IMG/VR virus record: IMGVR_UViG_3300036835_000554 | Span: 1-37,110 of that record | DNA from: a virus | Direction: 5' to 3' (one strand) | DNA: 37,110 nt | Shown: positions 4,903 to 30,100 of the stretch, piece after piece | How positions within the stretch are numbered: position 1 is the stretch's first letter | Layout: every line of letters begins with the position of its first letter | Notes under the pieces: generated by a model | What the model saw: the letters and a program-made list of their open reading frames with translations, nothing else | Told to the model about the DNA's origin: nothing | The model's database searches: none | Program-made: the position numbers and the translations under genes

Positions 4903-5142
4903 ATGCCCCTGACGATCGAGGAAGTGTTCCGGCGTACCATTCGCGACGAATTCGAGCGGCTGCACGTCGTCCAGCGCGTGCTGGTGGATATCGATGAGGT
5001 ATCCGAGATGTACGGCATGAGCGTGGGCGGAGTGCGCAACCTGGTGGCAGAAGGCAAACTGACGCCGGTGGACGGCCTGGACAGCCGTTTGCGCTTCGAC
5101 ATCAACGAAGTGCTGGCGCTGGTGAAGAAAAAGAAGAAGTGA
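4903..5142 (+). CDS. Excisionase-like small helix-turn-helix protein
   Basis: The 79-residue protein starts at ATG 4903 (MPLTIEEVFRRTIRDEF). Its second half has the compact winged-helix pattern of MerR/excisionase (HTH_17-like) proteins: VLVDIDEVSEMYGMSVGGV, then RNLVAEGKLTPVDG and LRFDINEVLALVKKKK, where the last block is the usual 'RF...EV..' tail. The gene lies 48 bases upstream of the integrase unit in the same direction, the common xis-int order. It may direct excision or regulate the integrase promoter, whose repeats are just downstream. A TTG start at 4867 would add 12 residues. Confidence 0.6.
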   Translation: MPLTIEEVFRRTIRDEFERLHVVQRVLVDIDEVSEMYGMSVGGVRNLVAEGKLTPVDGLDSRLRFDINEVLALVKKKKK

Positions 5143-5155
5143 TTTGAGTTTGTGT

Positions 5156-5184
5156 CGTAATTTTGGCGTAATTACTGGTATAAT
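5156..5184 (+). promoter_or_regulatory. Integrase promoter with extended -10 and repeated CGTAATT sites
   Basis: TGGTATAAT (-10 box TATAAT at 5179-5184 with upstream TG) lies six bases from the ATG at 5191, so the transcript would begin at the start codon and be leaderless. There is no ribosome site and no good -35 box. CGTAATT occurs at 5156-5162 and 5168-5174, a 12-bp direct repeat upstream of the -10. The same bases form an inverted repeat GTAATT/AATTAC. This looks like an activator or repressor site. Confidence 0.55.
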
Positions 5185-5190
5185 TATGCT

Positions 5191-5487
5191 ATGCCGCCCA
5201 AGCCTGGAACTCCCAAGCGCCCACATGGCGCCGGATCGTTAGTTCGCCGTCCAAACAACCGATGGAAGCTGCATTATCAGAAGGAAAACGGCGAATACCA
5301 CACCGAGACGATCACAGCCGAAACGCAAGAGCATGCCGAACGCGAACTTTTTCTCCGTACACTTCCACGGCGGCGCCGCTTGCTTGCGCGCGGCCGCGTC
5401 GATACTCAACAGCAATGGCAGGAATTGCTGCGCGAGCTGATGCACACCGCCGAGGCAGCGCTCGCCGATGCGGAGAAGAATGTATGA
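5191..5487 (+). CDS. Small arm-type DNA-binding protein coupled to the integrase
   Basis: The 98-residue basic protein begins MPPKPGTPKRPHGAGSLV and continues RRPNNRWKLHYQKENGEY. This resembles the N-terminal arm-binding (AP2-like) domain of tyrosine integrases. The downstream integrase itself begins with a comparable block (SHGDGTVRETKTGWQCEYRR). The second half is helical (QQQWQELLRELMHTAEAALA). Its stop overlaps the integrase start as ATGA, implying coupled translation. It could be a duplicated arm domain now encoded separately, or a remnant of an integrase gene. The role, perhaps in arm-site occupancy, is inferred. Confidence 0.55.
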   Translation: MPPKPGTPKRPHGAGSLVRRPNNRWKLHYQKENGEYHTETITAETQEHAERELFLRTLPRRRRLLARGRVDTQQQWQELLRELMHTAEAALADAEKNV

Positions 5488-6671
5488 GCAGGCCCAAGCG
5501 CTCGCACGGCGACGGCACGGTCCGCGAAACCAAAACCGGCTGGCAGTGCGAATACCGGCGACAATGCCAAACCTTTTCCAAGAGGGACTATCCCGCTAAG
5601 AATCGCGAGGAGCTTTTACGAAACCGCGCCTTCCGCAAAACATACCAGCAATGGCGCGACGAACTGGACGCGAAGGCGGAGCGCGGTCCAGTTGTTACCA
5701 TGAGCCAGCTCTTTGACAAATACCTGGCGCAGCTTCTAATCAACAAGCGCAGTGTATACATCGAGCAATTGCGCGTGGAGAAATACCTCCGTCCGCGCCT
5801 CGGGCATTTGGACGGCTCGAAATTCAACTTGCAGCATGTGGGCGATTACGTTATGGGCCGCAAGCAGGAAAAGACCCGGACCGGCGAATACACGAGCAAT
5901 GGAACGATCAACCGGGAACTGTCGATTATCACCAGTTCACTACGCCTGCTGTGGCCGGAGCCGCGCCTTCTGTTTATCAAAAAGTTGGACGAGTCCGACC
6001 GCATCCGGCAGGGCATCGTCGGCATGGAAGATTATCAACTTCTCCTGCGCGAACTGGAGGACTACCAAAAGCCGGTCTGGTGTTTCAGTTATTACACTGG
6101 CGTCCGCCGGGGCCAGCTACTCAAGCTGCGACGGGAATGGACCAAGGACTGGGAGACGACGGGGATCCTTGAAGTACCGGGCTGGTTTCAAGGCGAGCGT
6201 ATGACGAAGAATGGTAAACCGCATCCTGTGCCGATCTATTCCCAGGCGATGCGGGAAATGCTGAAATGGGCGCTCCAGATTGGCGACCCGGCTTGTCCCT
6301 ATCTGTTCCAGCGCGGAGGAAAGCGCATCAGCAAATCTACATTTAGCCACGCCTTTAAACGTGTCGCCCGGCGCGTCGGCCGCGACTGGATAGTATTCCA
6401 TGATTTACGCCGCACCGCCGTAACCAATATGGATGAGGCCGGAATTCCGCCTAAAGAAGCTATGGCCGTCGCAGGCATGCTCACCATGAGCATCTATGAG
6501 CGTTACAACATTCGTACCTCTGCCACGGCCAGAAAGAGCGTCCGGGCTACTGGAGAGCAGATGGCGCCGTGGCATGAAAAAAATTTTTCGGGCGCGGATT
6601 ACGAGAAGATTACGAGACAGAATCCGGCGCCACTCGCGCCAGGATTGGACGATGGCACCAAACCTAACTAA
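5484..6671 (+). CDS. int: Tyrosine integrase (site-specific recombinase)
   Basis: The 395-residue protein has an N-terminal arm-binding block (residues 1-35), a core-binding domain (about 70-165) and a catalytic domain. Catalytic residues are visible: Arg208 in YYTGVRRGQLLKL, Lys245 or nearby in MTKNGKPHPVPI, His306 and Arg309 in FHDLRRTAVT, and Tyr341 in SIYERYNI. At the position of the second conserved His/Trp (LGH in most members) there is Met332 (AGMLTMS), an unusual change. It integrates the phage at a tRNA-Leu gene: the attP core lies 15 bases after the stop, and one pair of arm-type repeats lies inside the last codons of the gene. Start ATG 5484 overlaps the upstream stop. Confidence 0.9.
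   Translation: MSRPKRSHGDGTVRETKTGWQCEYRRQCQTFSKRDYPAKNREELLRNRAFRKTYQQWRDELDAKAERGPVVTMSQLFDKYLAQLLINKRSVYIEQLRVEKYLRPRLGHLDGSKFNLQHVGDYVMGRKQEKTRTGEYTSNGTINRELSIITSSLRLLWPEPRLLFIKKLDESDRIRQGIVGMEDYQLLLRELEDYQKPVWCFSYYTGVRRGQLLKLRREWTKDWETTGILEVPGWFQGERMTKNGKPHPVPIYSQAMREMLKWALQIGDPACPYLFQRGGKRISKSTFSHAFKRVARRVGRDWIVFHDLRRTAVTNMDEAGIPPKEAMAVAGMLTMSIYERYNIRTSATARKSVRATGEQMAPWHEKNFSGADYEKITRQNPAPLAPGLDDGTKPN
6595..6618 (+). repeat. 24-bp arm-type repeat, left copy
   Basis: The segment starts CGGATTACGAGA and contains two GATTACGAGA units spaced 11 bp apart. An exact 24-bp copy lies at 6833-6856. The two copies flank the tRNA-derived core symmetrically, as arm-type integrase sites do. This copy is inside the integrase coding sequence. 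Confidence 0.7.
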
Positions 6672-7647: not shown

Positions 7648-7976
7648 CGGCCGCAAGTCCGGTCGAAAAACGGGAAGCGACCTTCACGCCGGGTCCGTGG
7701 GCCGTCGTTGCTGATACCGATAGCGGCTGCCTGATTGGTGAGACAGAATTCTGGTTTATCGTGGCACCGGAATCGGGCATTGCTTCGGATGAGCAAGATG
7801 ACGCGAACGCGCGCCTGATTGCCGCGGCGCCGGAGCTATACGAGGCGCTGCGTTTCGTTGAAGCGATTACCACTGAAGAATTGTCGTTCGCGAAGGTAGG
7901 AACCGGCGCGGAAGTTGCTCTGCGCCATGCGAACCGCAAAGCCAGAGAGGCGCTGGCGAAAGCGGAGGGCCGATGA
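7629..7976 (+). CDS. Conserved phage protein with ANARLIAAAPEL motif
   Basis: The 115-residue protein contains FTPGPWAVVADTDSG near the start and DANARLIAAAPELYEALRFV in the middle. This is a signature found in many phage early-region proteins of unknown function. The C-terminal part is a charged helix. It overlaps the neighbouring genes on both sides (19 and 4 bases). Confidence 0.75.
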   Translation: MRRNELTAASPVEKREATFTPGPWAVVADTDSGCLIGETEFWFIVAPESGIASDEQDDANARLIAAAPELYEALRFVEAITTEELSFAKVGTGAEVALRHANRKAREALAKAEGR

Positions 7977-8314
7977 GCGACGTAGACCAACTGATGGACT
8001 TTGCTCGGCGCGGCCTGGCCGCGCAGCAGGCTGCGGACGACGTCATTTCGGAGGCAGAAGGCAGGCGCGAGGAACAAAGCGGTAGGAAAGGAGGGTGCGA
8101 GTCTTCGGAGCAAACTTCGCGCTTGCTTGCGCTCGAAGACCGCGTATTCGATCTGCTCTGGCGCGCTGCGAAAGAGATCCGGCCGTGCAAGGCCTGCGGC
8201 GTCACCCTCTACTTCATCGAGCATGCCAGCGGTAAGATCGCGCCGTACACGGCGGATGCGGTGAATCACTTCGCGAATTGCCCGGAAGCGAAGCAGTTTC
8301 GGAGGAAGGCGTGA
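7973..8314 (+). CDS. Small phage zinc-finger-like protein
   Basis: The 113-residue protein has a helical N-terminal half. Its C-terminal half has CKACGVTLYFIEHASGKI, then PYTADAVNHFANCPEAKQF. The two early Cys and the later His/Cys can form one zinc site, a layout common in small phage early proteins. ATG 7973 overlaps the preceding stop, and its own stop overlaps the methylase GTG. It may bind DNA; the exact role is unknown. Confidence 0.65.
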   Translation: MSDVDQLMDFARRGLAAQQAADDVISEAEGRREEQSGRKGGCESSEQTSRLLALEDRVFDLLWRAAKEIRPCKACGVTLYFIEHASGKIAPYTADAVNHFANCPEAKQFRRKA

Positions 8315-9354
8315 AGGCACTCAAAGCGCCCTTCCCTTGGTTTGGTGGCAAGGCGCGAGTTGCGCATCTCATCTGGGAACGTTTCGGTGACGTTCCGAAT
8401 TATGTCGAACCCTTCGCCGGCAGCCTGGCTGTTTTGCTCTCGCGACCAGGTGGCCCGGGCCGCAATGAAACGGTCAACGACAAAGACTGCTACCTTGCCA
8501 ATTTCTGGCGGGCTCTTCAGTATGATCCCGAAACTCTTGCGCACCATGCTGACTGGCCGGTAAATGAGGCCGATCTACATGCGCGTCATCGCTGGCTCGT
8601 TGCGCAGTCGGAATTCCGCGAGCGGATGATCGGGGATCCGGAATTTTTTGACGCAAAGATCGCGGGCTGGTGGGTTTGGGGCGTTTCGCTATGGATTGGA
8701 TCCGGCTGGTGTGTGCGTCCGGACTGGACTGGACGAAGTTCTTGTGAGCGATCGCATCGCGGAATCCATGCAGAAAACTGGTGGAAGCGTCCAAATTTGA
8801 AGCGTGGAGGCTGCGGAATTCATCGAGCGGCCAAGCTGCCCTTGCAAAAGCCGGATATCAGCGGCGACGGCGGGGCAAGCGGTCGCGGCATCCATGCCCT
8901 CTACGCGTCGGATATTCACAGCTATTTCATGGCATTGGCAGCGAGGCTCCGACGAACGCGCGTCTGTTGTGGCGACTGGTTGCGAGTTCTAGGTCCGTCC
9001 CCGACGACAAAGATCGGACTTACAGGTATTTTTCTGGATCCGCCCTATTCGGCCGATCGACAAGACTGTTACGCCGAAGAGGATCGCCACATTGCAGCGG
9101 ATGTTCGGAATTGGGCGATCGTCCACGGTTCGGACCCAATGCTACGGATTGCACTCTGCGGCTACGAAGGCGAGCACGAAATGCCGGTGAATTGGCAATG
9201 TGTTGCATGGCGAGCGAACGGCGGCTACGCGAACCAGCAAAGTGGCGAAACGCGGGGGCGTACGAATGCCGCCCGTGAGCGCATCTGGTTCAGCCCGCAC
9301 TGCCGGCAGATTGGGCTGTTTGAGTGGGCAGACCTGGCTTCGGTCTCAGCTTGA
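8311..9354 (+). CDS. DNA adenine methyltransferase (D12 class)
   Basis: The 347-residue protein starts with GTG at 8311 (MKALKAPFPWFGGK). PFPWFGGK is the S-adenosylmethionine-binding motif of Dam-like D12 enzymes, YVEPFAGSLAVLL (about residues 31-43) is a further part of the cofactor pocket, and DPPYS (Asp243) is the catalytic motif for N6-adenine methylation. Between them is a Gly/His-rich insert (RGIHAENWWKRPNLKRGG, SGRGIHALYASD) typical of phage versions. It probably methylates phage DNA against host restriction or regulates DNA use. It is coupled to the upstream zinc protein and followed after ten bases by the replication gene. Confidence 0.88.
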   Translation: MKALKAPFPWFGGKARVAHLIWERFGDVPNYVEPFAGSLAVLLSRPGGPGRNETVNDKDCYLANFWRALQYDPETLAHHADWPVNEADLHARHRWLVAQSEFRERMIGDPEFFDAKIAGWWVWGVSLWIGSGWCVRPDWTGRSSCERSHRGIHAENWWKRPNLKRGGCGIHRAAKLPLQKPDISGDGGASGRGIHALYASDIHSYFMALAARLRRTRVCCGDWLRVLGPSPTTKIGLTGIFLDPPYSADRQDCYAEEDRHIAADVRNWAIVHGSDPMLRIALCGYEGEHEMPVNWQCVAWRANGGYANQQSGETRGRTNAARERIWFSPHCRQIGLFEWADLASVSA

Positions 9355-9364
9355 GGAAATCCGT

Positions 9365-10945: not shown

Positions 10946-11133
10946 CGACGCCCGCTCTGCGCACTGCGTTCGTCCACTGCCGGCGCGTGAACGGCTCGAT
11001 CGGCTCGTGTCCGGCGGGCGACGGACTGAACAGGGACTTGCAACCGATACTGGATTCAGAACTTGAGAGTTCGAGATCTTGTCTCAGTTGTTCTCCCACT
11101 GAGCGGGGCTTTGCAACCTTTCGTTCTCATTGA
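10942..11133 (+). CDS. Possible small gene cut by the CRISPR array
   Basis: ATG at 10942 overlaps the upstream stop in the same ATGA style as the rest of the operon. The frame encodes MTTPALRTAFVHCRRVNGSI and continues to 11133, but its last 17 codons are the degenerate first repeat and part of the first spacer. The natural protein therefore probably ended elsewhere. I read it as the last early gene, truncated when the array was acquired, or a chance frame. Confidence 0.4.
   Translation: MTTPALRTAFVHCRRVNGSIGSCPAGDGLNRDLQPILDSELESSRSCLSCSPTERGFATFRSH
11081..11117 (-). repeat. Degenerate terminal CRISPR repeat
   Basis: This repeat differs from the other fourteen at three positions (two in the hairpin loop, one in the following G-rich segment). 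The stem CTCAGT/ACTGAG is kept. Degenerate repeats normally mark the end away from the leader, which supports a leader at the 12140 side. Confidence 0.8.
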
Positions 11134-12140
11134 ACTCCTCGCAGCGATTTTGGTCTCAGTTCTTTTCCCACTGAGCAGGGCTTTGCAACCAATTTGGATC
11201 AGGGTGGATTTCTGTTTACTGCTCAGTCTCAGTTCTTTTCCCACTGAGCAGGGCTTTGCAACCGTGGACAAGCGCAAACAGCTTTGGTTCATCGGGAGTC
11301 TCAGTTCTTTTCCCACTGAGCAGGGCTTTGCAACCCACTTCAAAGACATTGTGCACGAGAATTAGCAGTGTCTCAGTTCTTTTCCCACTGAGCAGGGCTT
11401 TGCAACCATGCGCGCCAAGCATCCCCGCATCTCGCATGTGCTGTCTCAGTTCTTTTCCCACTGAGCAGGGCTTTGCAACAGTGGCGTTTACCGCCGTGGG
11501 CGAATCGAGGATCAATGTCTCAGTTCTTTTCCCACTGAGCAGGGCTTTGCAACACGACGCGAGATGATCAAACTCGGTCGTTGAAACGACGTCTCAGTTC
11601 TTTTCCCACTGAGCAGGGCTTTGCAACAACTTCCGGCGGCGGGTGCAGTGGGTTTTTGTACGGTCTCAGTTCTTTTCCCACTGAGCAGGGCTTTGCAACC
11701 ATGCGCGCCATGCTGCCCTGGGAAGTGCAAGAGCGGGTCTCAGTTCTTTTCCCACTGAGCAGGGCTTTGCAACGCGGTATTCCGCGCATGTAACATTGAG
11801 GAAATCCTGTCTCAGTTCTTTTCCCACTGAGCAGGGCTTTGCAACGGTCGCATCCCGGAAAACGGATTCTAACCACATGCCATGTCTCAGTTCTTTTCCC
11901 ACTGAGCAGGGCTTTGCAACGAAACCAGTGCCCGCGCTTGATAGCGGCAATCGTTCGTCTCAGTTCTTTTCCCACTGAGCAGGGCTTTGCAACCAATAAA
12001 CGAGTCCCGAAATCTTCGGCAGCAGGCATGTCTCAGTTCTTTTCCCACTGAGCAGGGCTTTGCAACGCCAAGCAGGGCTGATTAAGTGTCCTTCGCGCAT
12101 CCAGTCTCAGTTCTTTTCCCACTGAGCAGGGCTTTGCAAC
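11081..12140 (-). CRISPR. CRISPR array, 15 repeats and 14 spacers (type V)
   Basis: The 37-bp repeat reads GTCTCAGTTC...GGCTTTGCAAC on the plus strand. Repeats start at 11081, 11153, 11226, 11298, 11370, 11443, 11517, 11591, 11663, 11737, 11809, 11884, 11957, 12030 and 12104. Spacers are 35-38 bp and all different. Fourteen repeats look identical; the one at 11081 has three mismatches. The repeat holds CTCAGT and ACTGAG, a 6-bp stem with a 9-base loop. Read on the minus strand the hairpin ends two bases (AC) before the spacer, like the handle of tracrRNA-independent type V guides. The degenerate terminal repeat is then at the distal end and the array follows the effector gene on the same strand. 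I therefore assign the minus strand. No cas1, cas2 or cas4 is adjacent. By eye no spacer matches another part of this window. Confidence 0.95.
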
Positions 12141-12202: not shown

Positions 12203-13879
12203 TCACGCTTTTGCTTCCAATACCGGCCGATCTGCGAACTCACGCAATAAGTTCTGCGCTGCATTGTAGTCCTGATCCCAGACGCTCTGGCACAGGTCGC
12301 ATCTATGTATCACGGATTCCGCCGCATCCCAGCGTGCCGTATTCCCGCAGACATGGCACCGCTGTGTAGTCAGTCGAGCCTCCCTCTTTTCAATTTGCGT
12401 GCCTTCGCGTGCCGCCGTATTCTCTAGCGTCGTTCGCAGTTCGGAGATCGATGCAATTTGCCGATAGCGTGCTGCTCTCGTTTCAACCGCTTCTTCTTTG
12501 GCCTCGGGCTGCGCGTGCTCGGCTACTCGCCGCAGATCGAATTCTTCTAAGATAATCCGGTCGTAATGACCCGCTATCTGCGCGGCAAAATTCCGGTAAA
12601 TATATCGGCGGCGCTTGACGACTTGATCCTGAAGATTGGCTGCCCATTGGTACAAATGCATCTGCTTGCGCCTCCAGTTCTCCAGTTCCACGTCCGCAAG
12701 GCCTGCCTCCTTCGCTTTCCGCGCCCAGCCATAGAGCCGTCCCGGTGAACGCCACTGCGCGATCGTTGCGAGTTCCTGCCGCAATTCCTCGGTCGGTACA
12801 GCTAGTTCTTCATGCCCAACCCGATCAATCAAATATGCCTTTATCTCCTCGAATTTCTTATCGATCGTCGATTGCAGGGTGCGGACTCGTTCAAACTCCC
12901 ATAACACCGAATGTGACAGTCTCAAGCTGCCATGCTGGCCCTCCGCGTCGGCCCAATAGGCCACGCGCAATTCTGGTTTCTTTTCGTCGCTTGGAACCAG
13001 GCGCCACCCGACGTCAATCGCACACACACGTTCGCCCGCTTTGGGTTCGACATCGACCAAATCGTTTACGGTAATCAGCAACTTGTATCGCGGGCGCCCG
13101 GCCACCACTTCTCGCTTGATCGCGGCTGCACGCACGATTCCATCTTCTGGCAGAGGGCGATGCAGGACGACGGGCAAGCGAAACCAAATGGGAGCGCGGC
13201 GGAGGCTACCCACGCGTAGGGCGACCTCATGACGTGCCTTTGGGTTTTTCCGTCCTGTCGCTCGGATCTCTTCCTCACTCAGGGCACGTAGCTGCAAGCG
13301 TGTATCCTCGCCGAAGACCTTCTCGACAGGCAGTCCCGTTTGATAGCGTATGGAAACCTTTCCTTCCCCGCGAAACGCATGAAACCGCAACCCCGTCCGG
13401 CTGCGCTGCCGTGCCGTATCGTAGCTTGCCAAAACATCATCGTAATTACACCAATACAACTCTGCCGCATGGGTTGCTTGTTTCATGGCTGTAACGCGCT
13501 GTTGGTTTAACTCGGTGAGCTGAGATTTGCGCTCCGCTACCCGTTCTTTGCGTTTGGCCTTGGCGATGGCGATGGACCCGTTCAATTGCACTTTTGTGGC
13601 TGCGATCTCAGTTTTCAGCTCGCTCACGTCCACTTTGGTGGACCGCGCGGCTTGGCGCTTCTGTTTGATGGCCGTGCGCAAATCTTGCAAGGTTTCGAGG
13701 GCTTGGGTCACGGGAGCCTGCTCTTCCGGCTCACTCAAGAGTTCTGCTGCCTTTTGGCGATGTGTCGTTTCGACCTCAACCAAGGCGTTCCACAGCCGGT
13801 TGCGCCGCCGCATTTGTTCCATTGCTTCTGCTTCGCCAGCGATAGGGCGAAGGCAACCATATTCATAGACGCGTATCAT
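12203..13879 (-). CDS. cas12m: Cas12m-like (type V-M, formerly V-U1/c2c4) CRISPR effector
   Basis: The 558-residue protein is in the size range of Cas12m. An N-terminal helical part (about 20-160, coiled-coil rich, ending ELYWCNYDDVLASY) is followed by the domain with LRFHAFRGEGKVSIRYQ and FRLPVVLHRPLP. The C-terminal RuvC has motif I CAIDVGWRL (Asp289), the block IAQWRSPGRLYGWARKA, motif II IILEEFDLRRV (Glu445), a zinc ribbon (CHVCGN at 508-511, CDLC at 527-530) and motif III DQDYNAAQNLL (Asp535/Asp537). From memory, the YW...VL, LPV..HR.LP and QW.SP.R blocks match Cas12m of Mycolicibacterium, where the first two acidic positions are His and Asp. Here D-E-D is intact. Characterised Cas12m binds DNA and silences without cutting; this one may cut. 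It starts two bases after the preceding stop and is followed by the array. Confidence 0.82.
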   Translation of the reverse strand: MIRVYEYGCLRPIAGEAEAMEQMRRRNRLWNALVEVETTHRQKAAELLSEPEEQAPVTQALETLQDLRTAIKQKRQAARSTKVDVSELKTEIAATKVQLNGSIAIAKAKRKERVAERKSQLTELNQQRVTAMKQATHAAELYWCNYDDVLASYDTARQRSRTGLRFHAFRGEGKVSIRYQTGLPVEKVFGEDTRLQLRALSEEEIRATGRKNPKARHEVALRVGSLRRAPIWFRLPVVLHRPLPEDGIVRAAAIKREVVAGRPRYKLLITVNDLVDVEPKAGERVCAIDVGWRLVPSDEKKPELRVAYWADAEGQHGSLRLSHSVLWEFERVRTLQSTIDKKFEEIKAYLIDRVGHEELAVPTEELRQELATIAQWRSPGRLYGWARKAKEAGLADVELENWRRKQMHLYQWAANLQDQVVKRRRYIYRNFAAQIAGHYDRIILEEFDLRRVAEHAQPEAKEEAVETRAARYRQIASISELRTTLENTAAREGTQIEKREARLTTQRCHVCGNTARWDAAESVIHRCDLCQSVWDQDYNAAQNLLREFADRPVLEAKA

Positions 13880-15849: not shown

Positions 15850-16037
15850 CCATTGACCACGACGTAGGCTTGAAGCTCAAGATCAAATGCCTTGAGGGCA
15901 CCTGGCGCGTGATTCTGCCGGTGACACACCCGAACTGGGTCGACATCGCGCGGATTCCACATGCCAGCTACCGCGAGGCGCTGGAGGCGGCCCGAATGTG
16001 GGCGGAGGCGATCGAGCGGAAAGCCCTCTCGGCATGA
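15837..16037 (+). CDS. Small hypothetical protein
   Basis: The 66-residue protein starts MPGVTIDHDVGLKLKIKC. Its first half is strand-rich (LEGTWRVILPVTHPNWVD) and it ends in a helix (YREALEAARMWAEAIERK). It overlaps the terminase small subunit start by four bases (ATGA), so it belongs to the late operon. No family is recognised. Confidence 0.6.
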   Translation: MPGVTIDHDVGLKLKIKCLEGTWRVILPVTHPNWVDIARIPHASYREALEAARMWAEAIERKALSA

Positions 16038-16660
16038 AGCAGAAACGGTCCAAAAAGCTCACCGAAAAGCAAAAATTGTTCGTCGCAGAGTATTTGGTCG
16101 ATCTGAACGCGACAAAGGCTGCTGTTCGAGCAGGTTACACAGAAAAGACCGCACGCATTCACAGCTCGAAAATGTTAGCAAATGCTAACATTCAGCAGCT
16201 CATTTCCGAGAGCCTCCGCAAACGCACGGACAAGCTCGAAATCACCTCCGAACGCATCCTTTCCGAACTCGCCTACATGGGCTTTTCGAACATGCTCGAC
16301 TACATCGGCACAACCGAGTTCGGTGACGCGTATGTGGATCTCTCCAGCCTGACCCGCGAGCAAGCCAAGGCGATTCAGGAAATCACGGTAGAGGCCTACA
16401 CGGAAGGACGCGGCGAAGACGCGCGGGAAATCAAACGGACCAAGTTCAAGTTGGCGGACAAGCGCGGATCGCTGGAACTCCTGGGTAAGCATCTGAAGCT
16501 CTTCACCGACCGGCACGAGCACCACTTGGATCTGGATGAACTCTCCGATAATCAGCTCCTCGACCTGCTCGCCCGCCTCGAGGGCCAGAGTCGCCGATTG
16601 GCTCTACTCCGAGATTCTGGCGCGGCGCGCACGGCAGGCGGAGCGGAAGCGCTACAGTGA
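16034..16660 (+). CDS. terS: Terminase small subunit
   Basis: The 208-residue protein starts at ATG 16034. The N-terminal helix-turn-helix block, KLTEKQKLFVAEYLVDLNAT followed by KAAVRAGYTEKTARIHSSKM, is the signature of the Terminase_2 (XtmA-like) family, which recognises phage DNA for packaging. A helical oligomerisation part follows (LTREQAKAIQEITVEAY). It precedes the large subunit, as in most tailed phages. The last 125 bases overlap the large-subunit frame; the final residues (RRLALLRDSGAARTAGG) have unnatural composition and may be only a read-through end. Confidence 0.88.
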   Translation: MKQKRSKKLTEKQKLFVAEYLVDLNATKAAVRAGYTEKTARIHSSKMLANANIQQLISESLRKRTDKLEITSERILSELAYMGFSNMLDYIGTTEFGDAYVDLSSLTREQAKAIQEITVEAYTEGRGEDAREIKRTKFKLADKRGSLELLGKHLKLFTDRHEHHLDLDELSDNQLLDLLARLEGQSRRLALLRDSGAARTAGGAEALQ

Positions 16661-18047
16661 CTCGCTCGCCCGCTATGTGGAAGCTGCCTGGCCGCTGCTC
16701 GAACCCGTCACGCCGCTCATCGCCGGCCGCCATCTCGACGCGCTATGCGAATATCTGACCGCCGTCACACTGGGCCAAATCCGTCGGCTGATCATCAACA
16801 TCATGCCGCGGGTCGGCAAGTCGAGCGCGGTTTCCGTGCTGTGGCCCACCTGGGAGTGGGCGCGCGACCAGGCCACCTCCCGTTGGATGTTCGCCACCTA
16901 TGCGGCCGATTTGAGCGTCCGGGATTCGGTGCGGCGCAGAAACGTCATTCAATCGGAATGGTTCCGCGGGTATTGGGGCGTGGATGTCCAGCTTTCGGCC
17001 GACGTGAATTTGAAGGACGAGTATGTCTCGACACATGCCGGCTCGATGTTCTCCACCTGGATCGGGGGCGGTACCGGCCGCGGCGGCAAGCGCCTGGTCA
17101 TCGACGATCCGCATTCCCCGAAAAAAGCCTTGTCTGATGCCGAACGCGAAACGGCGGTCACCTACATTCGCAACGTGCTGATTTCGAGACTCGATAATCC
17201 GGCGACCGATTCGATCGTCATGATCATGCAGCGGCTGCATGAGAACGACGCCACGGGCGAGCTGCTGGCGGACGGCGGCTGGACGCATCTCGACCTGCAA
17301 GCCGAGGCGGAGGACCGCACCATCATTTCGATGCCGCTGTCCGGTGTCGATTGGATCCGGGAAAAAGGGGATCTGCTCGAGCCGGTCCGCTTTCCGAAGG
17401 AAGTTCTCGGGAATCTGCAGCGTGAAATGGGCTCGGCTGCGTATTCCGGCCAATACCAGCAACGGCCGGCGCCGAAGTCGGGCATCCTGTTCCAGCCGGG
17501 CTGGTGGCAGTTTTATAAAACCGCTCCCGCCTTCGACTTTGTTGTTCTCAGCGTCGATTGCGCGTTTAAAGACTACAAAACGAGTGACTACGTCTCCCTC
17601 GAGGTGATTGGCTTTGTGGGCCCCAAAGCTTACCTCATCGAGAAGAAAACTGAACATCTCGGCTACTCGGCGACCAAAGCGGCGATCCGCTCGATACGAG
17701 CGGACGATAAACGCATCTCACACATTCTGATCGAGGATGCAGCGAACGGGCCGGCCGTGATCGAAGAACTGTCACGCGAGATCCCGGGCATCATTGCGCT
17801 GAAGCCGGAGGGCGGCAAAGTGGCGCGTGCGCAGGCCGCGACGGCCGATGTGGAAGCCGGCAATGTTTATTTGCCGGAGAACAAAGCCTGGACTCATCAA
17901 TGGGTCACGCTTTTCAGTAAGTTCCCGAACGTGAAGAACGACGACGACGTGGACGCCTTCAGCCAGGCCATGAACTGGCGCCGCAAACGGACGCTGCCGA
18001 AAGTCTACCGCTTGTATAGCAAGAGCCCCAGCGAAGAAACCGAATGA
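16536..18047 (+). CDS. terL: Terminase large subunit
   Basis: The 503-residue protein has an ATPase domain with a Walker A-like IMPRVGKSS (about 89-97) and Walker B RLVIDD (186-191). The C-terminal RuvC-like nuclease has Asp341 in LSVDCAFKD, Glu400/Asp401 in ILIEDAANGP and the acidic NDDDVDAF (469-474). It cuts and pumps DNA into proheads. The only in-frame start before the conserved region (DWLYSEILARRARQAERKR) is ATG 16536, which makes an unusually long 125-base overlap with the small subunit. A nonstandard start near 16590 is an alternative. Confidence 0.92.
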   Translation: MNSPIISSSTCSPASRARVADWLYSEILARRARQAERKRYSDSLARYVEAAWPLLEPVTPLIAGRHLDALCEYLTAVTLGQIRRLIINIMPRVGKSSAVSVLWPTWEWARDQATSRWMFATYAADLSVRDSVRRRNVIQSEWFRGYWGVDVQLSADVNLKDEYVSTHAGSMFSTWIGGGTGRGGKRLVIDDPHSPKKALSDAERETAVTYIRNVLISRLDNPATDSIVMIMQRLHENDATGELLADGGWTHLDLQAEAEDRTIISMPLSGVDWIREKGDLLEPVRFPKEVLGNLQREMGSAAYSGQYQQRPAPKSGILFQPGWWQFYKTAPAFDFVVLSVDCAFKDYKTSDYVSLEVIGFVGPKAYLIEKKTEHLGYSATKAAIRSIRADDKRISHILIEDAANGPAVIEELSREIPGIIALKPEGGKVARAQAATADVEAGNVYLPENKAWTHQWVTLFSKFPNVKNDDDVDAFSQAMNWRRKRTLPKVYRLYSKSPSEETE

Positions 18048-19375
18048 AGCAGGGCCGTCCCATCACCTGGAAGGATCGCGCCAAATTTGCTTGGCGGATC
18101 CTAACGAAATCCTCTGCGATCGCGCCTTATATTGCGCGCATGTATGGCAACCGGGCGGTCTGGACGGGAGGCGACTACACTTCACTCGTACAAGCGGGTT
18201 TTGTGCGCTGCGGTGATGTCTATTCCTGCATCACCACCATCCTGATTGCCGGCCGGCAATTGCGGATCGGTCTCTATCAGGGAACCGAAGACGACAACGA
18301 GGAGCTGACCGGTTCAAATTTTCCATTGGCGCAATTGATGCGGCGGCCGAACCCCGCGCAATCGCTGGGGGACCTGCTCGAATACACGGTGGGCTATCTG
18401 CTCTGCGGCGGCAATTGTTTCCTCGAAGCCGTACGTCCCTTCACTAGCCGGCCGCCGAATGAACTCTACACGCATCGGCCCGATCTCATCCAGGTTTACC
18501 TGACAAACGATGTCGCGACTTCGTCCACACTCATCGATCACTATGGTTTGATTGGAACGCAGATTCGCTGGTCTCCCGAAGACATGGGCCACGCGAAGCT
18601 ATTCAATCCGCTTGAGCCCTGGTACGGCATGTCGCCGCTGCGGGCCGCCGCCTATGGGATTGACACGATCAATGAATCGAAACACGTCCAAAAATCTCTT
18701 TTACAAAACTCGGGACGCCCGCCGGGCATTCTGCAAGCCAAGGCGGATCTGACGCCCGAGCAGCAGGATCAGCTCAAACGCGACCTGCGCGATGAGTATA
18801 TGGGGAGCGCCGCCGCCGGCACGCCCATGGTGGTGAGTGGAGATTTTTCCTGGCTGGGCCAGGCGTTTTCGCCCGAGCAGATGCAGGCGCTCGAACTGCG
18901 GGGCCTCGAAAAGCGTGACATCGCCGCTATCTTGCATGTACCGCCCGAGCTGGTCGGCGATACGCAAAACAAGACCTACAGCAATTACCAAGAGGCGCGG
19001 AAGGGTCTCTATACCGAAGCGGTCCTGCCGCTGTGGGATCTCGTGTGCGGATTCCTGACGCTGTGGCTCTGCCCGCAATTTGGAGAGAATCTTTTCCTGG
19101 CGGTCGATCGGGATTCGGTCGACGCCCTGCAGGAAGATCGCGAAAAGACCTGGAACAGGGTCTTCGGAGCCGTCGATCGCGGTCTCATCGATCGGGATGA
19201 AGGACGGCTTGAACTCGGCTATGCAAAGCGCACAGAGAAAATTGCCGGCCAATTGACCGTAGGCGCGGGGACGGTCTTGCTCGAGGAACTGGCGCTGCCG
19301 CCGGACCAGCCGCCGATGGAAGGCGTACCGCCGCCCCAGTTGTTGAACGGGAAACCGGTCGCGGCCGTGCAATGA
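18044..19375 (+). CDS. Portal protein (HK97 family)
   Basis: The 443-residue protein has the HK97-portal sequence pattern: RCGDVYSCITTILIAG near residue 57, LMRRPNPAQSLGDLLEYTVG near 97-116, WYGMSPLRAAAYGID near 190, LLQNSGRPPGILQA near 220, and AAILHVPPELVGDTQNKTYS near 295. It forms the dodecameric ring through which DNA enters and leaves. It lies between the terminase and the minor head protein, and its start overlaps the terminase stop. Confidence 0.92.
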   Translation: MKQGRPITWKDRAKFAWRILTKSSAIAPYIARMYGNRAVWTGGDYTSLVQAGFVRCGDVYSCITTILIAGRQLRIGLYQGTEDDNEELTGSNFPLAQLMRRPNPAQSLGDLLEYTVGYLLCGGNCFLEAVRPFTSRPPNELYTHRPDLIQVYLTNDVATSSTLIDHYGLIGTQIRWSPEDMGHAKLFNPLEPWYGMSPLRAAAYGIDTINESKHVQKSLLQNSGRPPGILQAKADLTPEQQDQLKRDLRDEYMGSAAAGTPMVVSGDFSWLGQAFSPEQMQALELRGLEKRDIAAILHVPPELVGDTQNKTYSNYQEARKGLYTEAVLPLWDLVCGFLTLWLCPQFGENLFLAVDRDSVDALQEDREKTWNRVFGAVDRGLIDRDEGRLELGYAKRTEKIAGQLTVGAGTVLLEELALPPDQPPMEGVPPPQLLNGKPVAAVQ

Positions 19376-21148: not shown

Positions 21149-21793
21149 ATGCTGCACAAAGCGTTTTGGTTTGAAATCAAACAGACCTCCGACGAAGGAA
21201 AGATTCTCGGGTATGCCTCGACGTTTAACAATGTCGACGAGCAAGGGGATGTCGTGCGGCCGGGTGCCTTTCTCGATACGATTGCCGCGACCGGCGGCCA
21301 GGTGCCGATGCTCTGGCAACACCGCACCGCCGAGCCGATCGGCAAGACTACATCGCTTCAGGAAAACACCAACGGCCTTCTGATGGAGGGCGAGCTTCTC
21401 ATGACCCTGCAGCGCGCCCAGGAAGCACTGTTGCTCATCAAAGAAGGCATCGTCAAGGGCCTTTCCATCGGCTACGACCCAACCAAATATGCCTATCTCG
21501 AAGACGGAGTCCGGGAACTGCTCGGCATCAAGCTCTATGAGATTTCGCCGGTGACCTTTCCGGCCAACGAACAGGCGCAGATTCTTTCTGCCAAAGATCT
21601 GAGAACCATACGGGATTGGGAAAGCTTCTTGCGGGACGCGGGGCTTCCTACTGCCTTGGCCAAAGCGCTACTGGCCGAGGGCTATGGCGGTATTCAAAAG
21701 CACACGCGGGACGCTGTGCCGGCGGATATCGCGAAGGCAATTGAAGCGCACTTACTCGACATCAGCATGGAGGCTATCTATGGACTACAGTGA
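21149..21793 (+). CDS. HK97-family prohead protease
   Basis: The 214-residue serine protease belongs to the U35/HK97 prohead type. Typical blocks are GYASTFNNVDEQGDVVRPGA (21-40), MLWQHR with catalytic His58, and IVKGLSIGYD with catalytic Ser106, followed by LYEISPVTFPANEQAQI. It trims the capsid N-terminal scaffold domain during maturation. It is encoded directly before, and overlaps by 14 bases, the major capsid gene, the usual order. Confidence 0.9.
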   Translation: MLHKAFWFEIKQTSDEGKILGYASTFNNVDEQGDVVRPGAFLDTIAATGGQVPMLWQHRTAEPIGKTTSLQENTNGLLMEGELLMTLQRAQEALLLIKEGIVKGLSIGYDPTKYAYLEDGVRELLGIKLYEISPVTFPANEQAQILSAKDLRTIRDWESFLRDAGLPTALAKALLAEGYGGIQKHTRDAVPADIAKAIEAHLLDISMEAIYGLQ

Positions 21794-23294
21794 GCTGACC
21801 CGACTACTCGATCAGCACAAGCAATCAATCACCACCCAATTAACGGAAACCAAGCAGGCCCTGCAGGAGATCAAGGCCAAGGGTTATCTCGATCCGGAGA
21901 CAAAGGAGAAGCTCATCAAGCTCGAGGCGAAGGGTGAGGAAATCGGCAACGCCTATAAGGATTTTCGCGAAAAAGACTTCAAGACGCTGCAGGACGAAAA
22001 CAAGCAGATGCGCAAGGACCTTGACGAGGTTGCGACGCGCTTGAACCGGAAATCGATTCCCGGCGCTCCGGGTTTTGAGGGAATGAAGACCTACGGGGAA
22101 GCCTTCACGGACAGTTCGGTCTTCAAGGAATGGCATAAGCGCGGCAAGCAAGGCCCGGTCAGTGTGGAGTTCGCCAAGGGTCATTTCCAAATCGGTGTAC
22201 CGTTTACGCCCGGAGTGAAAGCCGATGGCACGGCTGGCGGTGGAGTCACTATCACGCCAGGGACTTCCGGGGCGCCGGGGGCTCCGGCACTGCAAGCCGC
22301 TCCCGCCTATGGCCCACAACCCGTTCCGTCACTTTTTCCGAGCGGCCAGTGGTTTCCGGTGGCGCCTACGCTCGTGCCCGGTATCCAGCGCCCGCCCGAT
22401 TGGACACCAACGATGCGCTCGATTATTCCCAGCGCACCCACCTCGAGCGACTCCATCCGCTACTTGCGGGAGAAAGCGCCGTATGATTACTCGACCTACA
22501 CCGCCGACTATCAGGTCCAGTACGGCGACAAAAAGAAGCTGTCGACGCTCGCCTATGAAGTGATGGCATTGCCCGTCGTCACAATCGCCCACTACATCAA
22601 GGTCCCAACCCAAATGCTCGATGATGCTCCCATGCTGGCCGGCGATATCAATAACCGGTTGCTTATCGGCATCGATCGCAAGGAAGACTACGAGATCCTC
22701 TACGGCGACGGCGCGGCCGGGCATCTCTACGGCATCGTGCCGCAGGCGACTCCGTTCGACAAAGCCGCCTTTGATGCGGCAGTGACAAACGCCACCGCGA
22801 TTGACTATTTCGCCGGCATGCTGATGCAGCTCGCCGCCGGGCGTTACGTCGCAACAGCCGCCGTCGTCAGCAACTCCGCCTGGTGGAATATGGCGCTCAT
22901 GAAAAACGCCATGGGGATGTATATTCTGGGCGGCCCGCAGGCGACCACGCCTCTTTCTCTGTGGGGAACGCGCGTGGTGCTGAACCCGATGATGAATCCG
23001 GGCAGCGCCCTGGTCGGTGACTTCGCAACCGGCGCCGAGATCTTCGACCGCATGACGGCGAATATCCAGGTCGCGAATCAAAACGAGGACGACTTCATTC
23101 GAAACCTGGTCACCATCCGCGCCGAAGAGCGGCTGGCATTGGCGGTCTTTCTGCCCGACGCTTTTGTGTATAACGCCGGCCTCTCCTCGCAGACGGTTTC
23201 AGCCTTTGGGCAGCAACTACCCAAGCCACCGCACGCCGATCACGAATCCGATGCCTCACGCACAGCGGAACCGGCGAAGCCAACAAGAAAATAA
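21780..23294 (+). CDS. Major capsid protein (HK97 fold)
   Basis: The 504-residue protein starts at ATG 21780 (MDYSELTRLLDQHKQSIT). Residues about 1-110 form a long coiled coil (LTETKQALQEIKAKGYLDP onward), the scaffold (delta) domain removed by the protease. The shell domain follows, with RPPDWTPTMRSIIPSAPTSS, a P-domain region HYIKVPTQMLDDAPMLAGDI and the C-terminal VTIRAEERLALAVFLPDAF. The last ~35 residues (KPPHADHESDASRTAEPAK) are a flexible tail. It is larger than simple HK97 capsids because of a Gly/Pro-rich segment at about 150-205. Confidence 0.9.
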   Translation: MDYSELTRLLDQHKQSITTQLTETKQALQEIKAKGYLDPETKEKLIKLEAKGEEIGNAYKDFREKDFKTLQDENKQMRKDLDEVATRLNRKSIPGAPGFEGMKTYGEAFTDSSVFKEWHKRGKQGPVSVEFAKGHFQIGVPFTPGVKADGTAGGGVTITPGTSGAPGAPALQAAPAYGPQPVPSLFPSGQWFPVAPTLVPGIQRPPDWTPTMRSIIPSAPTSSDSIRYLREKAPYDYSTYTADYQVQYGDKKKLSTLAYEVMALPVVTIAHYIKVPTQMLDDAPMLAGDINNRLLIGIDRKEDYEILYGDGAAGHLYGIVPQATPFDKAAFDAAVTNATAIDYFAGMLMQLAAGRYVATAAVVSNSAWWNMALMKNAMGMYILGGPQATTPLSLWGTRVVLNPMMNPGSALVGDFATGAEIFDRMTANIQVANQNEDDFIRNLVTIRAEERLALAVFLPDAFVYNAGLSSQTVSAFGQQLPKPPHADHESDASRTAEPAKPTRK

Positions 23295-27138: not shown

Positions 27139-27178
27139 ATGAGCCCGCGATTTTGAGCGAGGCGAAGACTCCAATATG
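27139..27178 (+). repeat. Junction repeat element, copy 3 (37-bp period)
   Basis: ATGAG (27139-27143) is followed by CCCGCGATTTTGAGCGAG and GCGAAGACTCCAAT, then the ATG of the tape measure gene at 27176. It lies six bases after the stop of the chaperone extension. It is the most diverged complete copy. Confidence 0.65.
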
Positions 27179-30100
27179 GAAACCTGGGAACGAGTCATCA
27201 ACGTCATTCTCGGCTTGAAGACGGATCAGTACGCATCCGCTCTGGCCTCGATCACGAAAGGCACGGATGCCGCCATGGCGAGCGTCCAGAAGTCCATGGG
27301 CACGGCGAACGTCTCGATGGACGGCGTGACGCAGGCGGCGGGCGCTACCTCTGCCGCCATGCAGGAGATCGCGAAAACGAGCGCGGTGGCCGGCATGGGC
27401 ATGGATGCCGCTGCCAAGGGTACCAGCTCCACCACGGCGGCCATGATGGCGTTGAATGCGTCCACCACCGCGGCCGGGAGTGGACTCGGGTTGGTTTCCA
27501 ATGCCGCCGCGAGCACGGCGAAAGCCACCGAATCGAGCGCCGCGGCGATGAAGACGGCCAGCGTGAGCGCCGAAACGCTGGGCAGCTCGGCCGCGAAAGC
27601 GGCGGAAGCGACGGCGGCGAGTGCAACGAATCTGCAGAAAGCTTCCGGCTCGATCCAGCAGGCTGGCCAAACGGCCTCGAGTGCCAGCTCGTTCTTCCAG
27701 AATCTCGGAACGCGCGTCAGCTCTCTGATTCCGGGTCTCGGCAGCCTGGTCACGGTTGCCGGCGGCGTCGCGACGGGATTCGCCGGCATGCAGATCGCCG
27801 AAACGGTAGGCACCTGGCTCTTGAATACCGGGACCAAGGCGCTCGCCGCATCCGATGCGTTCAAGTCGATCAATAAGGCAGTTGGGGACGCGCAGGCAGC
27901 CTTTCAGGCAGCGGCCGGGAAGGGCATCGAGACGCTGGCGACAGCCATTACCCAGTTGCTGGGTCCTTCGCTCGAAAAACTGGTCTCCTGGGTGACCGAA
28001 GGGCTGAAATGGGTGACCGCTTTCGGCGATTGGTTCCAGAAATCGGGCATTCTGACCAGTGCCGCTAAGAGCTTATTCGACCAATTGGGCTTAGGGTTCA
28101 ACAACGTAAGCACGACTGCGAATTCCACACTGGCGGGCATACTAGAAGCGCTCGGCATTCTTGGAACTAAACTCGATGCGAATGGACGGCAAGTCATCGA
28201 TTGGCAGGCTACCTGGGCGAAGGCCTGTAAGGCTATCGAAGATTCAGTCGTAGCGCTGCTAGCCGTGGTCGCTGTGGCTTCGGACCAATTGACCGGCCAA
28301 TTGAACGATGCCAATGACAAGGTACAGCAGATGGGGAAGAAACATCATGATGCTCTCGTCAAGCTCTTTGATTTGCTGCCCGACAAGATCAAAAAGACCT
28401 TTCACGATATGGGCGATGATTTCGGCTATCTGTTTGGAAAGATCGGGGCTGGCCTCAATAGCGTCAATGAACAATCGAACAAGGGAGTCTTTTCGCCGGA
28501 CCTAGCCCAACAATTCAAGGACAAAAAGGCCGCCATACAAGGCTTTTTCGATAGTGTCGGCGAGGGCGTATCGAAACAGAAAGCGCTCAATGATGCCGCC
28601 CAGAAAACAACGCAGGCCATCCAGGGGCAAACAGCGGCGATCGACCAGTTAGCCACGACGCACGCCCGAGATTTCGCGAAGCTCTATAAAGACTGGCAGG
28701 ACTTTCTCGACTTACAGCGAAAAGTAAATGCGGCGGTGGCGGCTTTTATCCCGACGTATGAACAGGCCGATAAGGTCTTTCAACAGATGGGCCGGGATGC
28801 GGTCTCGAGCCTCGATCGCGTCACGCAGGCCATGAATTCGCTCAAGTTTGCGACCGACAAAGACATCGATGACATGGTCTACAACGTCAAAACCGGTTGG
28901 GAAAAGCAAGTGTCGCTCGCCGGCACATCGACGCAGGAAATCATGCGGCTCAACAAAGTCGCCTGGGATCAGATTGTACAGATCGTGCAGACGCAGTGGG
29001 CCACCATGAACGAGACGCAGCGCCAGGCCATCGCGCAGGCCGGGGACGAGATTCAGAAATCAGCCGCCAAATATAACCAGATCCTCGGCAAAACCACAAC
29101 CGATACCGCGAAGGCGACCGATGATCAGTCCAAGCTCTGGCAGCAGTGCGCGCAGAACATGAACCGCGCCATCAAGCAGGCAGCCTCGGACATCACGGAT
29201 ACGCTCTGGTCGGGCGACAAGAGTTTCGGAGAAGTCACCAAATCGATGTTGACCGATATCGGCAAGATGTTCACGCAGACATTCGTGCAGACCGGTCTCC
29301 AGGCGGTTCAGAAATTTGTGACGGATGGCACGAAAGGCTTGCAGGATTTCTTCAAAAACATGGGTGGCCTTGGCGGGCTCTTCGGCGGCGGCGGATCCAC
29401 CACTGTGCAGACGGGGACGCAAACGGGAACTGGCACAGGCAGCAGTGCCGCCGGGGCCTTATCCGGCATCGGCGGGGCGGTCAGTCTGGTTTCAGGCGCG
29501 GTTTCCGCCATCAGCGGCGTAATCAGCAATTTTCAGCTCAAAGGCCAGACAAAGGTCATGGAAAACACGCAGCAGCTGACGGGCATGATCTTTTACGATG
29601 TCCATGGCTTGGCCATCGAGGGCATTGCGTATTTCCATTTCATGGAAAAGTGGGTTTTCGCGTTTGCCAGCAAACTCGATACCCTGGTGAGCGGCGTAGC
29701 CGGCCTCGTGAGTCGCATCGACCGCGATATCATGCCCATCCTGCGTGATTTTCGTTTCGATGTGGTGGGCCGTATCGACCGCGACATCATGCCGGCGCTG
29801 CGAACCATGGCCGGTTTGGGCGGCCTTGCTAGCGCAGCCCCCAGCTTCAACCTTCAGCCCATCATCGACAGTTTCCAGAGCGCGATTTCCTCCATCCAGT
29901 CCTCTTTCAGCTCAATTTCATTGGGCAATCTGAGCATCGATTTGTCGCCCTTGGTTTCCGTCATGTCCGATGTCCGCGCAGCACTCTCACAAGGCGCTTT
30001 GCGGCCAAATGTCGTGTTGACGGTCCAAACCGGCGTCTCGACACAGCAAGTCGCCAATGAAATCGTGCGGCAGCTGCAATTGGCTGGCGTGATCCGTTGA
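27176..30100 (+). CDS. Tape measure protein
   Basis: The 974-residue protein has a long Ala/Ser/Thr-rich helical N-terminal half (about residues 20-170). A hydrophobic segment follows (about 188-215, with SLVTVAGGVATGFAGM), as in tape measures that cross the membrane. Extended helices come next (DQLTGQLNDANDKVQQMGKK), then a Gly-rich section (GGLGGLFGGGGSTTVQTGTQ) and a C-terminal part with repeated RIDRDIMP (about 840-880). Length sets tail length; about 974 residues implies a siphovirus tail of ordinary size. Position after the G/T chaperones confirms the call. Confidence 0.9.
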   Translation: METWERVINVILGLKTDQYASALASITKGTDAAMASVQKSMGTANVSMDGVTQAAGATSAAMQEIAKTSAVAGMGMDAAAKGTSSTTAAMMALNASTTAAGSGLGLVSNAAASTAKATESSAAAMKTASVSAETLGSSAAKAAEATAASATNLQKASGSIQQAGQTASSASSFFQNLGTRVSSLIPGLGSLVTVAGGVATGFAGMQIAETVGTWLLNTGTKALAASDAFKSINKAVGDAQAAFQAAAGKGIETLATAITQLLGPSLEKLVSWVTEGLKWVTAFGDWFQKSGILTSAAKSLFDQLGLGFNNVSTTANSTLAGILEALGILGTKLDANGRQVIDWQATWAKACKAIEDSVVALLAVVAVASDQLTGQLNDANDKVQQMGKKHHDALVKLFDLLPDKIKKTFHDMGDDFGYLFGKIGAGLNSVNEQSNKGVFSPDLAQQFKDKKAAIQGFFDSVGEGVSKQKALNDAAQKTTQAIQGQTAAIDQLATTHARDFAKLYKDWQDFLDLQRKVNAAVAAFIPTYEQADKVFQQMGRDAVSSLDRVTQAMNSLKFATDKDIDDMVYNVKTGWEKQVSLAGTSTQEIMRLNKVAWDQIVQIVQTQWATMNETQRQAIAQAGDEIQKSAAKYNQILGKTTTDTAKATDDQSKLWQQCAQNMNRAIKQAASDITDTLWSGDKSFGEVTKSMLTDIGKMFTQTFVQTGLQAVQKFVTDGTKGLQDFFKNMGGLGGLFGGGGSTTVQTGTQTGTGTGSSAAGALSGIGGAVSLVSGAVSAISGVISNFQLKGQTKVMENTQQLTGMIFYDVHGLAIEGIAYFHFMEKWVFAFASKLDTLVSGVAGLVSRIDRDIMPILRDFRFDVVGRIDRDIMPALRTMAGLGGLASAAPSFNLQPIIDSFQSAISSIQSSFSSISLGNLSIDLSPLVSVMSDVRAALSQGALRPNVVLTVQTGVSTQQVANEIVRQLQLAGVIR

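What the first reader, a model, noticed from the sequence alone, without database searches (positions are those of the whole stretch)
12203..13879. Phage-borne Cas12m-like effector with an intact D-E-D RuvC site
The 558-residue protein has Cas12m-type blocks (LYW...VL, LPVVLHRPLP, QWRSPGR) together with Asp289, Glu445 and Asp535/537. Characterised Cas12m binds DNA and blocks transcription without cutting; as I recall, the Mycolicibacterium enzyme has His and Asp at the first two catalytic positions. A Cas12m relative with a canonical site inside a temperate phage could be a cutting, ancestral or phage-specialised form, used against competing phages or to control host genes.
Basis: partly seen in the sequence, partly recalled or inferred. 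Interest (0 to 1): 0.9.

Follow-up and report, generated by a model that had tools for sequence, protein, structure and literature searches.

The report
Phage CRISPR aimed at rival phages
A small temperate phage carries its own compact CRISPR system (a Cas12m protein plus a guide array), and at least one of its guides matches the DNA-packaging gene of a sibling phage, so it most likely serves to shut out rival phages, probably by clamping onto their DNA rather than cutting it.

Summary
The protein is real: 558 aa, minus strand, window 12203-13879, full-length Cas12m (PADLOC Cas12u1 E 1.3e-111; closest PDB chain 23vw, 'CRISPR-associated DNA-binding protein Cas12m', E 8e-103). Its RuvC residues are D289-E445-D537.

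D-E-D is not new for Cas12m. MsCas12m has the same triad (D274 aligns with D289) and, purified, did not cut DNA (PMC11013384). A cutting enzyme stays possible but is disfavoured.

Two results go further. Spacer S04 matches the terminase gene of a sibling phage with 3 of 36 mismatches; the phage's own terminase differs at 14 of 36. A contig that differs from its nearest kin at 2 sites outside the array carries two extra leader-end spacers; one matches the phage's own integrase gene with 3 of 38 mismatches.

Verdict: a subtype V-M system, most likely used against sibling phages, with an array that changed recently. New member of a known kind. The other 15 of 17 spacers have no target found; host unknown; host-gene targeting untested.

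The parts
12203..13879 (-). cas12m, 558 aa, subtype V-M effector; RuvC D289-E445-D537; zinc-finger C508, C511, C527, C530
12141..12202 (-). 62-nt leader between gene and array (array polarity inferred from repeat decay at the far end and from the extra spacers of G004 on this side)
   Evidence: no promoter-like match found here by consensus scan
11025..12140 (-). CRISPR array: 14 identical 37-nt repeats, one variant repeat (11081-11117) and one decayed repeat at the far end (about 11025-11044); 15 spacers of 35-38 nt; repeat on the minus strand GTTGCAAAGCCCTGCTCAGTGGGAAAAGAACTGAGAC
11407..11442 (-). Spacer S04: matches terL of sibling phage contig L031 (3895-3930, minus) with 3 of 36 mismatches
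17693..17728 (-). This phage's own terL segment at the site homologous to the S04 target: 14 of 36 mismatches to S04, flanks alike
6531..6568 (+). Own integrase segment that matches spacer S15 (present only in contig G004) with 3 of 38 mismatches (positions 2, 37, 38)
5262..6671 (+). Integrase (phage integrase family), marks a temperate phage
15998..16660 (+). Terminase small subunit
16536..18047 (+). Terminase large subunit
18044..19375 (+). Portal protein
21684..23294 (+). Major head protein
27176..30100 (+). Tape-measure protein

Best explanation
This is a minimal subtype V-M CRISPR-Cas locus (cas12m, short leader, array) carried as cargo by a temperate tailed phage. The array is transcribed away from the gene; Cas12m trims the transcript and, with one short crRNA, searches DNA (inferred from studied Cas12m). 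It binds matching DNA of closely related phages that enter the same cell, for example in their terminase gene, and blocks transcription or replication there, most likely without cutting, so that the resident phage and its host are spared. New spacers enter at the leader end by Cas1-Cas2 of the host, since none was found on the phage (inferred). Shown here: family membership, triad, array and repeat type, sibling-terminase match with divergence of the phage's own copy, two-spacer difference between otherwise nearly identical phage contigs. Inferred: expression, crRNA processing, DNA binding, no cutting, adaptation in trans.
For: Cas12m membership by profile, by sequence and by fold. Repeat of the V-M kind: same architecture as the array behind the Allomeiothermus silvanus cas12m; two-helix crRNA scaffold with changes on both sides at 7 of 9 pairs over 7 repeat sequences, 0 of 500 shuffles as high. 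S04 matches terL of sibling contig L031 with 3 of 36 mismatches, while the phage's own homologous site has 14 of 36; shuffled spacers never came below 10 mismatches in the same 999,027 bases (20 shuffles for each of 20 spacers). L031 is 89% identical to the window over 4.5 kb and its contig name carries the same metagenome number as G002. The targeted 36 nt lie among the 2.5% most divergent windows between the two phages, as expected if self-matching guides are purged. G004 differs from G001 at 2 sites outside the array yet has two more spacers, both next to the leader. No Cas1 (PF01867) or Cas2 (PF09827) in 6 of 6 viral records searched. Studied Cas12m, D-E-D ones included, bind and do not cut (PMC11013384).
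Against: Only 2 of this phage's 17 known spacers (15 in the window, 2 more in G004) have a match in the DNA held, and one of the two (S15) matches only the phage's own integrase; no sibling with a perfect S15 site was found. The S04 match is imperfect, with a mismatch at position 2 of the guide. Core words of S08 and S14 occur in IMG/VR only inside the arrays, and the window's array has nothing significant in INPHARED or PLSDB (best E 0.3 and 4). The extra spacers of G004 could be ancestral and lost elsewhere, and the end of that contig shows shuffled spacers, so its assembly is not above doubt. The D-E-D triad is kept in 5 of 5 virus-borne proteins examined, which non-cutting does not explain by itself. 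The repeat alone folds no better than its shuffles, and no promoter-like match lies in the leader.
Confidence: 0.68

Rival explanations
1. The same system, but the effector cuts or nicks its target through the intact D-E-D site.
For: D-E-D is intact and kept in 5 of 5 virus-borne Cas12m examined plus 23vw and the Ms protein, across 30-43% identity to the window, whereas 0 of 9 other plasmid-borne rows have it. Omura et al. suggest that D-E-D clades may hydrolyse DNA (PMC10442227, passages).
Against: Four D-E-D Cas12m tested by Bigelyte et al. gave no detectable dsDNA cleavage, and purified MsCas12m cut no DNA or RNA, target or collateral (PMC11013384 sections 36-37). Changing MmCas12m2 from H-D-D to D-E-D did not restore cutting (PMC10442227, passage; 'data not shown' there). 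The depositors of the nearest structure, also D-E-D, call it DNA-binding.
Confidence: 0.17
2. The array mainly silences host genes during lysogeny or infection; matches to phages are a side effect.
For: Fifteen of the 17 known spacers have no target found; huge phages have been reported with spacers against host genes (PMC7162821, passages).
Against: The two spacers with a match hit phage genes. No match to any bacterial gene was seen, but bacterial genomes were not scanned with the spacers, only phage and plasmid collections.
Confidence: 0.1
3. A relict: the locus is no longer expressed or active and the array differences are assembly effects.
For: Decayed repeats at the far end; shuffled spacers at the end of contig G004; no promoter-like match in the leader.
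Against: Open full-length gene with triad, His-Arg pair and zinc-finger cysteines kept; 14 identical repeats; the two extra spacers sit between intact repeats and the phage's own leader.
Confidence: 0.05

Closest known systems
MsCas12m system, plasmid pMESIL02 of Allomeiothermus (Meiothermus) silvanus; identity of the record with the studied MsCas12m inferred from species name and D274
   Same: Gene followed by array; repeat GTAGCAACGCC..GCTCAG..CTGAGAC is homologous; triad D274-E429-D518 aligns with D289-E445-D537; single-crRNA Cas12m
   Different: 34% identical; plasmid, not phage; its repeats are more variable
PDB 23vw, 'CRISPR-associated DNA-binding protein Cas12m'
   Same: Nearest solved structure, full length, E 8e-103, D-E-D
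   Different: 39% identical; source and paper not seen
MmCas12m2 (8hhl) and GoCas12m (8pm4)
   Same: Same fold: ranks 1 and 2 in Foldseek (E 5.9e-27 and 7.1e-25); His269-Arg270 of MmCas12m2 correspond to H240-R241
   Different: H-D-D triad in both (PMC10442227 and PMC11013384, passages); actinobacterial
Virus-borne Cas12m: L005/G005, L072/G008, L071/G007 (IMG/VR) and Virus Rctr197k (KX853510)
   Same: D-E-D, 30-43% identical to the window; arrays seen behind L005, L071 and Rctr197k, a decayed one behind L072
   Different: Larger contigs (38.8 to 197 kb); Rctr197k gene filed as 'similar to transposase'
CRISPR systems of huge phages (PMC7162821)
   Same: No adaptation genes; spacers against genes of other phages (passages)
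   Different: Genomes above 200 kb there, about 36 kb here; other effectors

Membership tests
Subtype V-M (Cas12m, formerly V-U1) | Full-length similarity to Cas12m/V-U1 effectors | tested here: met
   PADLOC Cas12u1 E 1.3e-111, residues 2-548; 23vw E 8e-103. A PADLOC model labelled Cas12f (PDLC01692, 532 positions) scores nearly as well (E 5.3e-107); I take it, from its length and score, to be a V-U1 model under another label, while the other Cas12f models reach 8.8e-12 at best
Subtype V-M (Cas12m, formerly V-U1) | Cas12m fold | tested here: met
   AF2 model, mean pLDDT 77.7, pTM 0.46; the four best Foldseek matches are Cas12m entries, TM 0.45-0.56 to the query, then Cas12f from E 9.6e-12. 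Low pTM: domain placement is uncertain
Subtype V-M (Cas12m, formerly V-U1) | CRISPR array beside the gene with V-M type repeat and two-helix scaffold | tested here: met
   in the window's own repeat 1 of the 9 pairs is broken
Subtype V-M (Cas12m, formerly V-U1) | Conserved His-Arg pair (MmCas12m2 H269-R270) in the crRNA-binding region | tested here: met
   H240-R241, the same in 13 of 13 Cas12m rows, absent in the TnpB row
Subtype V-M (Cas12m, formerly V-U1) | No adaptation genes in the locus | tested here: met
   PF01867 (Cas1) and PF09827 (Cas2): 0 of 6 records each, with positive controls. Cas4 and the E. coli-type Cas2 family not searched
Subtype V-M (Cas12m, formerly V-U1) | Guided by a single crRNA, no tracrRNA | not testable with these tools
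   No Rfam match in the window, which says little
Subtype V-M (Cas12m, formerly V-U1) | Binds target DNA without cutting | not testable with these tools
   Needs biochemistry
TnpB (IS200/IS605) | Closest match and tree place among TnpB, transposon context | tested here: not met
   Only the C-terminal domain matches (PF07282); TnpB outside all Cas12m rows, with the tree rooted at the midpoint and that row very long; gene sits beside a CRISPR array
Phage-borne nuclease groups Cas12j (Cas-phi), Cas12f | Best match by sequence or fold | tested here: not met
   Cas12j entries at rank 46-49 and Cas12f from rank 5 in Foldseek; no Cas12j chain among the 16 phmmer matches

The most novel reading that the evidence does not exclude
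The virus-borne clade keeps D-E-D because its Cas12m still performs a metal-dependent cut or nick, making this a working, self-updating nuclease immunity that a 36-kb temperate phage deploys against its own siblings with spacers acquired through the host's Cas1-Cas2.
Probability: 0.14. Interest if true: 0.8.

Novelty: new member of a known kind. Interest (0 to 1): 0.45.

Why it matters
V-M systems have been studied mainly from plasmids and bacteria; a review notes that some prophages carry them (PMC11656645, passage) and a landfill survey found virus-encoded Cas12m-like proteins (PMC12607003, passages). This window adds a compact temperate phage with a complete locus, a named target in a sibling phage (terminase), a visible mismatch between target and own copy, and sister contigs that differ chiefly in the leader-end spacers. 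That makes two open questions testable with one small system: what a non-cutting Cas12m gains a phage in competition with siblings, and why the virus-borne proteins keep D-E-D when tested D-E-D members do not cut.

Tried and rejected
Host search: the degenerate repeat gave 0 stretches in genome contigs and alignment A2 gave 25 pattern stretches but no relative; the method sees only close relatives. Terminase relatives in INPHARED point to no one host (nearest Aeromonas phage 56 group, 41%). More siblings: integrase found only this phage's contigs; tape measure added one 67% contig (L077), terminase 25 loci, 4 of them this phage. Spacer targets: INPHARED and PLSDB with the window's array (S14 and S15 not in that query), S14 and S08 cores in IMG/VR: nothing outside arrays. 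The weak matches of S02, S08, S09 and S11 at 11-12 mismatches were set aside, being no better than shuffled spacers. TnpB, Cas12f and Cas12j were considered and rejected. The tree has 1 well-supported inner branch of 11 (23vw with L072), so no clade number is claimed. Folding of the repeat alone, promoter and terminator scan and Rfam gave no support. The D-E-D comparison uses 10 plasmid Cas12m records of the 32 plasmid records matched; of the 12 with at least 80% coverage I looked at 9, leaving out three further Paraburkholderia fungorum records (H16-H18).

Full report
What is there. The ORF at 12203-13879 lies on the minus strand and encodes 558 aa. It matches the PADLOC Cas12u1 profile over residues 2-548 (E 1.3e-111); only the TNB domain is known to Pfam. 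The nearest solved chain is 23vw, named 'CRISPR-associated DNA-binding protein Cas12m' (E 8e-103), then UnCas12m4a, MmCas12m2 and 8pm4. An AlphaFold2 model from four window and locus sequences (mean pLDDT 77.7, pTM 0.46) has four Cas12m entries as its best Foldseek matches. So this is Cas12m, not TnpB, Cas12f or Cas12j. A PADLOC model labelled Cas12f scores nearly as high and is discussed in the membership table.

The active site. Aligned to MmCas12m2 (H317, D485, D579; PMC10442227 passages), the triad is D289, E445 and D537. D-E-D occurs in 5 of 5 virus-borne proteins I compared (window, L005, L072, L071, Rctr197k), in 23vw and in the Allomeiothermus silvanus protein, whose first Asp is residue 274, the residue mutated in the MsCas12m study; 0 of 9 other plasmid-borne rows have it: D-K-D twice, N-D-D, N-T-D, N-E-D twice, D-N-D twice, H-D-D. 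These rows are related, so the contrast is not a statistical test. Bigelyte et al. chose eight Cas12m, four of them D-E-D, detected no dsDNA cleavage with any, and found that purified MsCas12m and GoCas12m cut neither DNA nor RNA; pre-crRNA trimming did not need D274 (PMC11013384, sections 36 and 37 read in full; other passages).

The array. Directly behind the gene, after 62 nt, lie 14 identical 37-nt repeats, one variant and one decayed repeat at the far end, with 15 spacers. The repeat resembles that behind the A. silvanus gene. Over seven repeat sequences of V-M loci, a two-helix scaffold (columns 9-11 with 21-23, and 15-20 with 30-35) has 93.7% of cells paired, and 7 of 9 pairs with changes on both sides; 0 of 500 shuffles reach these values. 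The structure was drawn up after looking at these repeats, which flatters it, and the window's own repeat breaks one pair. By itself the repeat folds no better than its shuffles.

The carrier. The window is an IMG/VR virus record. Four further IMG/VR contigs carry the same phage; two of them have a 127-nt exact terminal overlap, giving a circle of about 35,950 bases, while the window's ends overlap at only 87-93% and look like a strain mosaic. Integrase, terminase, head and tail families mark a temperate tailed phage. Cas1 and Cas2 were not found in 6 of 6 viral records searched. The exact repeat occurs in IMG/VR only in this phage's contigs.

What the spacers match. I compared 20 spacers (15 of the window, 2 extra of G004, 3 of L005) with 78 held sequences, 999,027 bases with much duplication. 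Two gave matches far below the shuffles (whose best was 10 mismatches). S04 matches the terminase gene of L031, a 6.6-kb contig 89% identical to the window over 4.5 kb, with 3 of 36 mismatches; the phage's own terminase at that place has 14 of 36. Among 36-nt windows of the two aligned phages this place is in the most divergent 2.5%. L031 and the phage contig G002 bear the same metagenome number in their names. S15, found only in G004, matches the integrase gene of this phage itself with mismatches at guide positions 2, 37 and 38. I infer that it was taken from a sibling's integrase, but no such sibling was found; a self-derived or self-directed spacer is not excluded. The two flanks on the PAM side end in TC and CC; two sites are too few for a motif. 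The other 15 of this phage's 17 spacers have no target found.

The array has changed recently. The arrays of the window, G001, G002 and G003 agree in S01-S13. G004 has S14 and S15 between S13 and the leader. Outside the array G004 differs from G001 at 2 sites, G002 at 2, G003 at 3; the window at 2 plus a cluster of 29 at its mosaic end. Leader-end gain in G004 is the usual reading; loss in the others is possible. The far end of contig G004 shows S07-S02-S11-S12, which is either rearrangement or misassembly.

How it most likely works. A prophage- or phage-encoded V-M complex binds DNA of incoming siblings and blocks essential genes such as terminase. The step from match to protection rests on studied Cas12m (PMC11013384, abstract in the listing and passages). 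Spacer gain through host Cas1-Cas2 is inferred; such use in trans is proposed for mobile-element CRISPR in general (PMC9071438, passage).

What is known. V-M on plasmids and 'some prophages' (PMC11656645, passages), virus-encoded Cas12m-like proteins in landfills (PMC12607003, passages), V-U variants and phage-targeting spacers in huge phages (PMC7162821, passages). In the literature searches made here (listings, plus passages of the papers named) I saw no report of this phage or of a V-M spacer matching a sibling's terminase; most subscription papers, including the first Cas12m paper (Wu et al. 2022), are not in that library. I therefore call it a new member of a known kind.

Noticed in passing
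window 4342-5226 (minus): Outside the array, the differing sites among the phage contigs fall mostly in this one ORF of unknown family (window 4494, 4634, 4848), with one more, unique to G003, near window 33510.
   Followed up: no
G004 contig end (L022, G004 35668-36376): Array read as S01-S07 then S02, S11, start of S12: rearranged variant or misassembly.
   Followed up: no
window 11407-11416 and 11700-11709: Spacers S04 and S08 begin with the same 10 bases on the plus strand, CATGCGCGCC, next to the repeat, though the rest differs.
   Followed up: no
window 3-693 and 35995-36685; 740-1160 and 36690-37110: The window's ends repeat each other at 87% and 93% identity, while sister contigs are exact circles: two strains joined in assembly.
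   Followed up: partly
L072 11720-12140: Decayed array-like repeats behind the 43% identical virus-borne cas12m.
   Followed up: no
G005 (contig of L005) 86136-86552: A second, weaker match to the C-terminal half of Cas12m on the same viral contig.
   Followed up: no
L058 (KX853510) 631-885 and 7849-9363: Virus Rctr197k has two annotated CRISPR arrays, one directly behind its Cas12m-like gene, which is filed as similar to transposase.
   Followed up: partly
L085 and L087: The cas12m genes on the Manganitrophus GAC1 and Methylobacterium phyllosphaerae plasmids are annotated as two CDSs each, suggesting decay.
   Followed up: no
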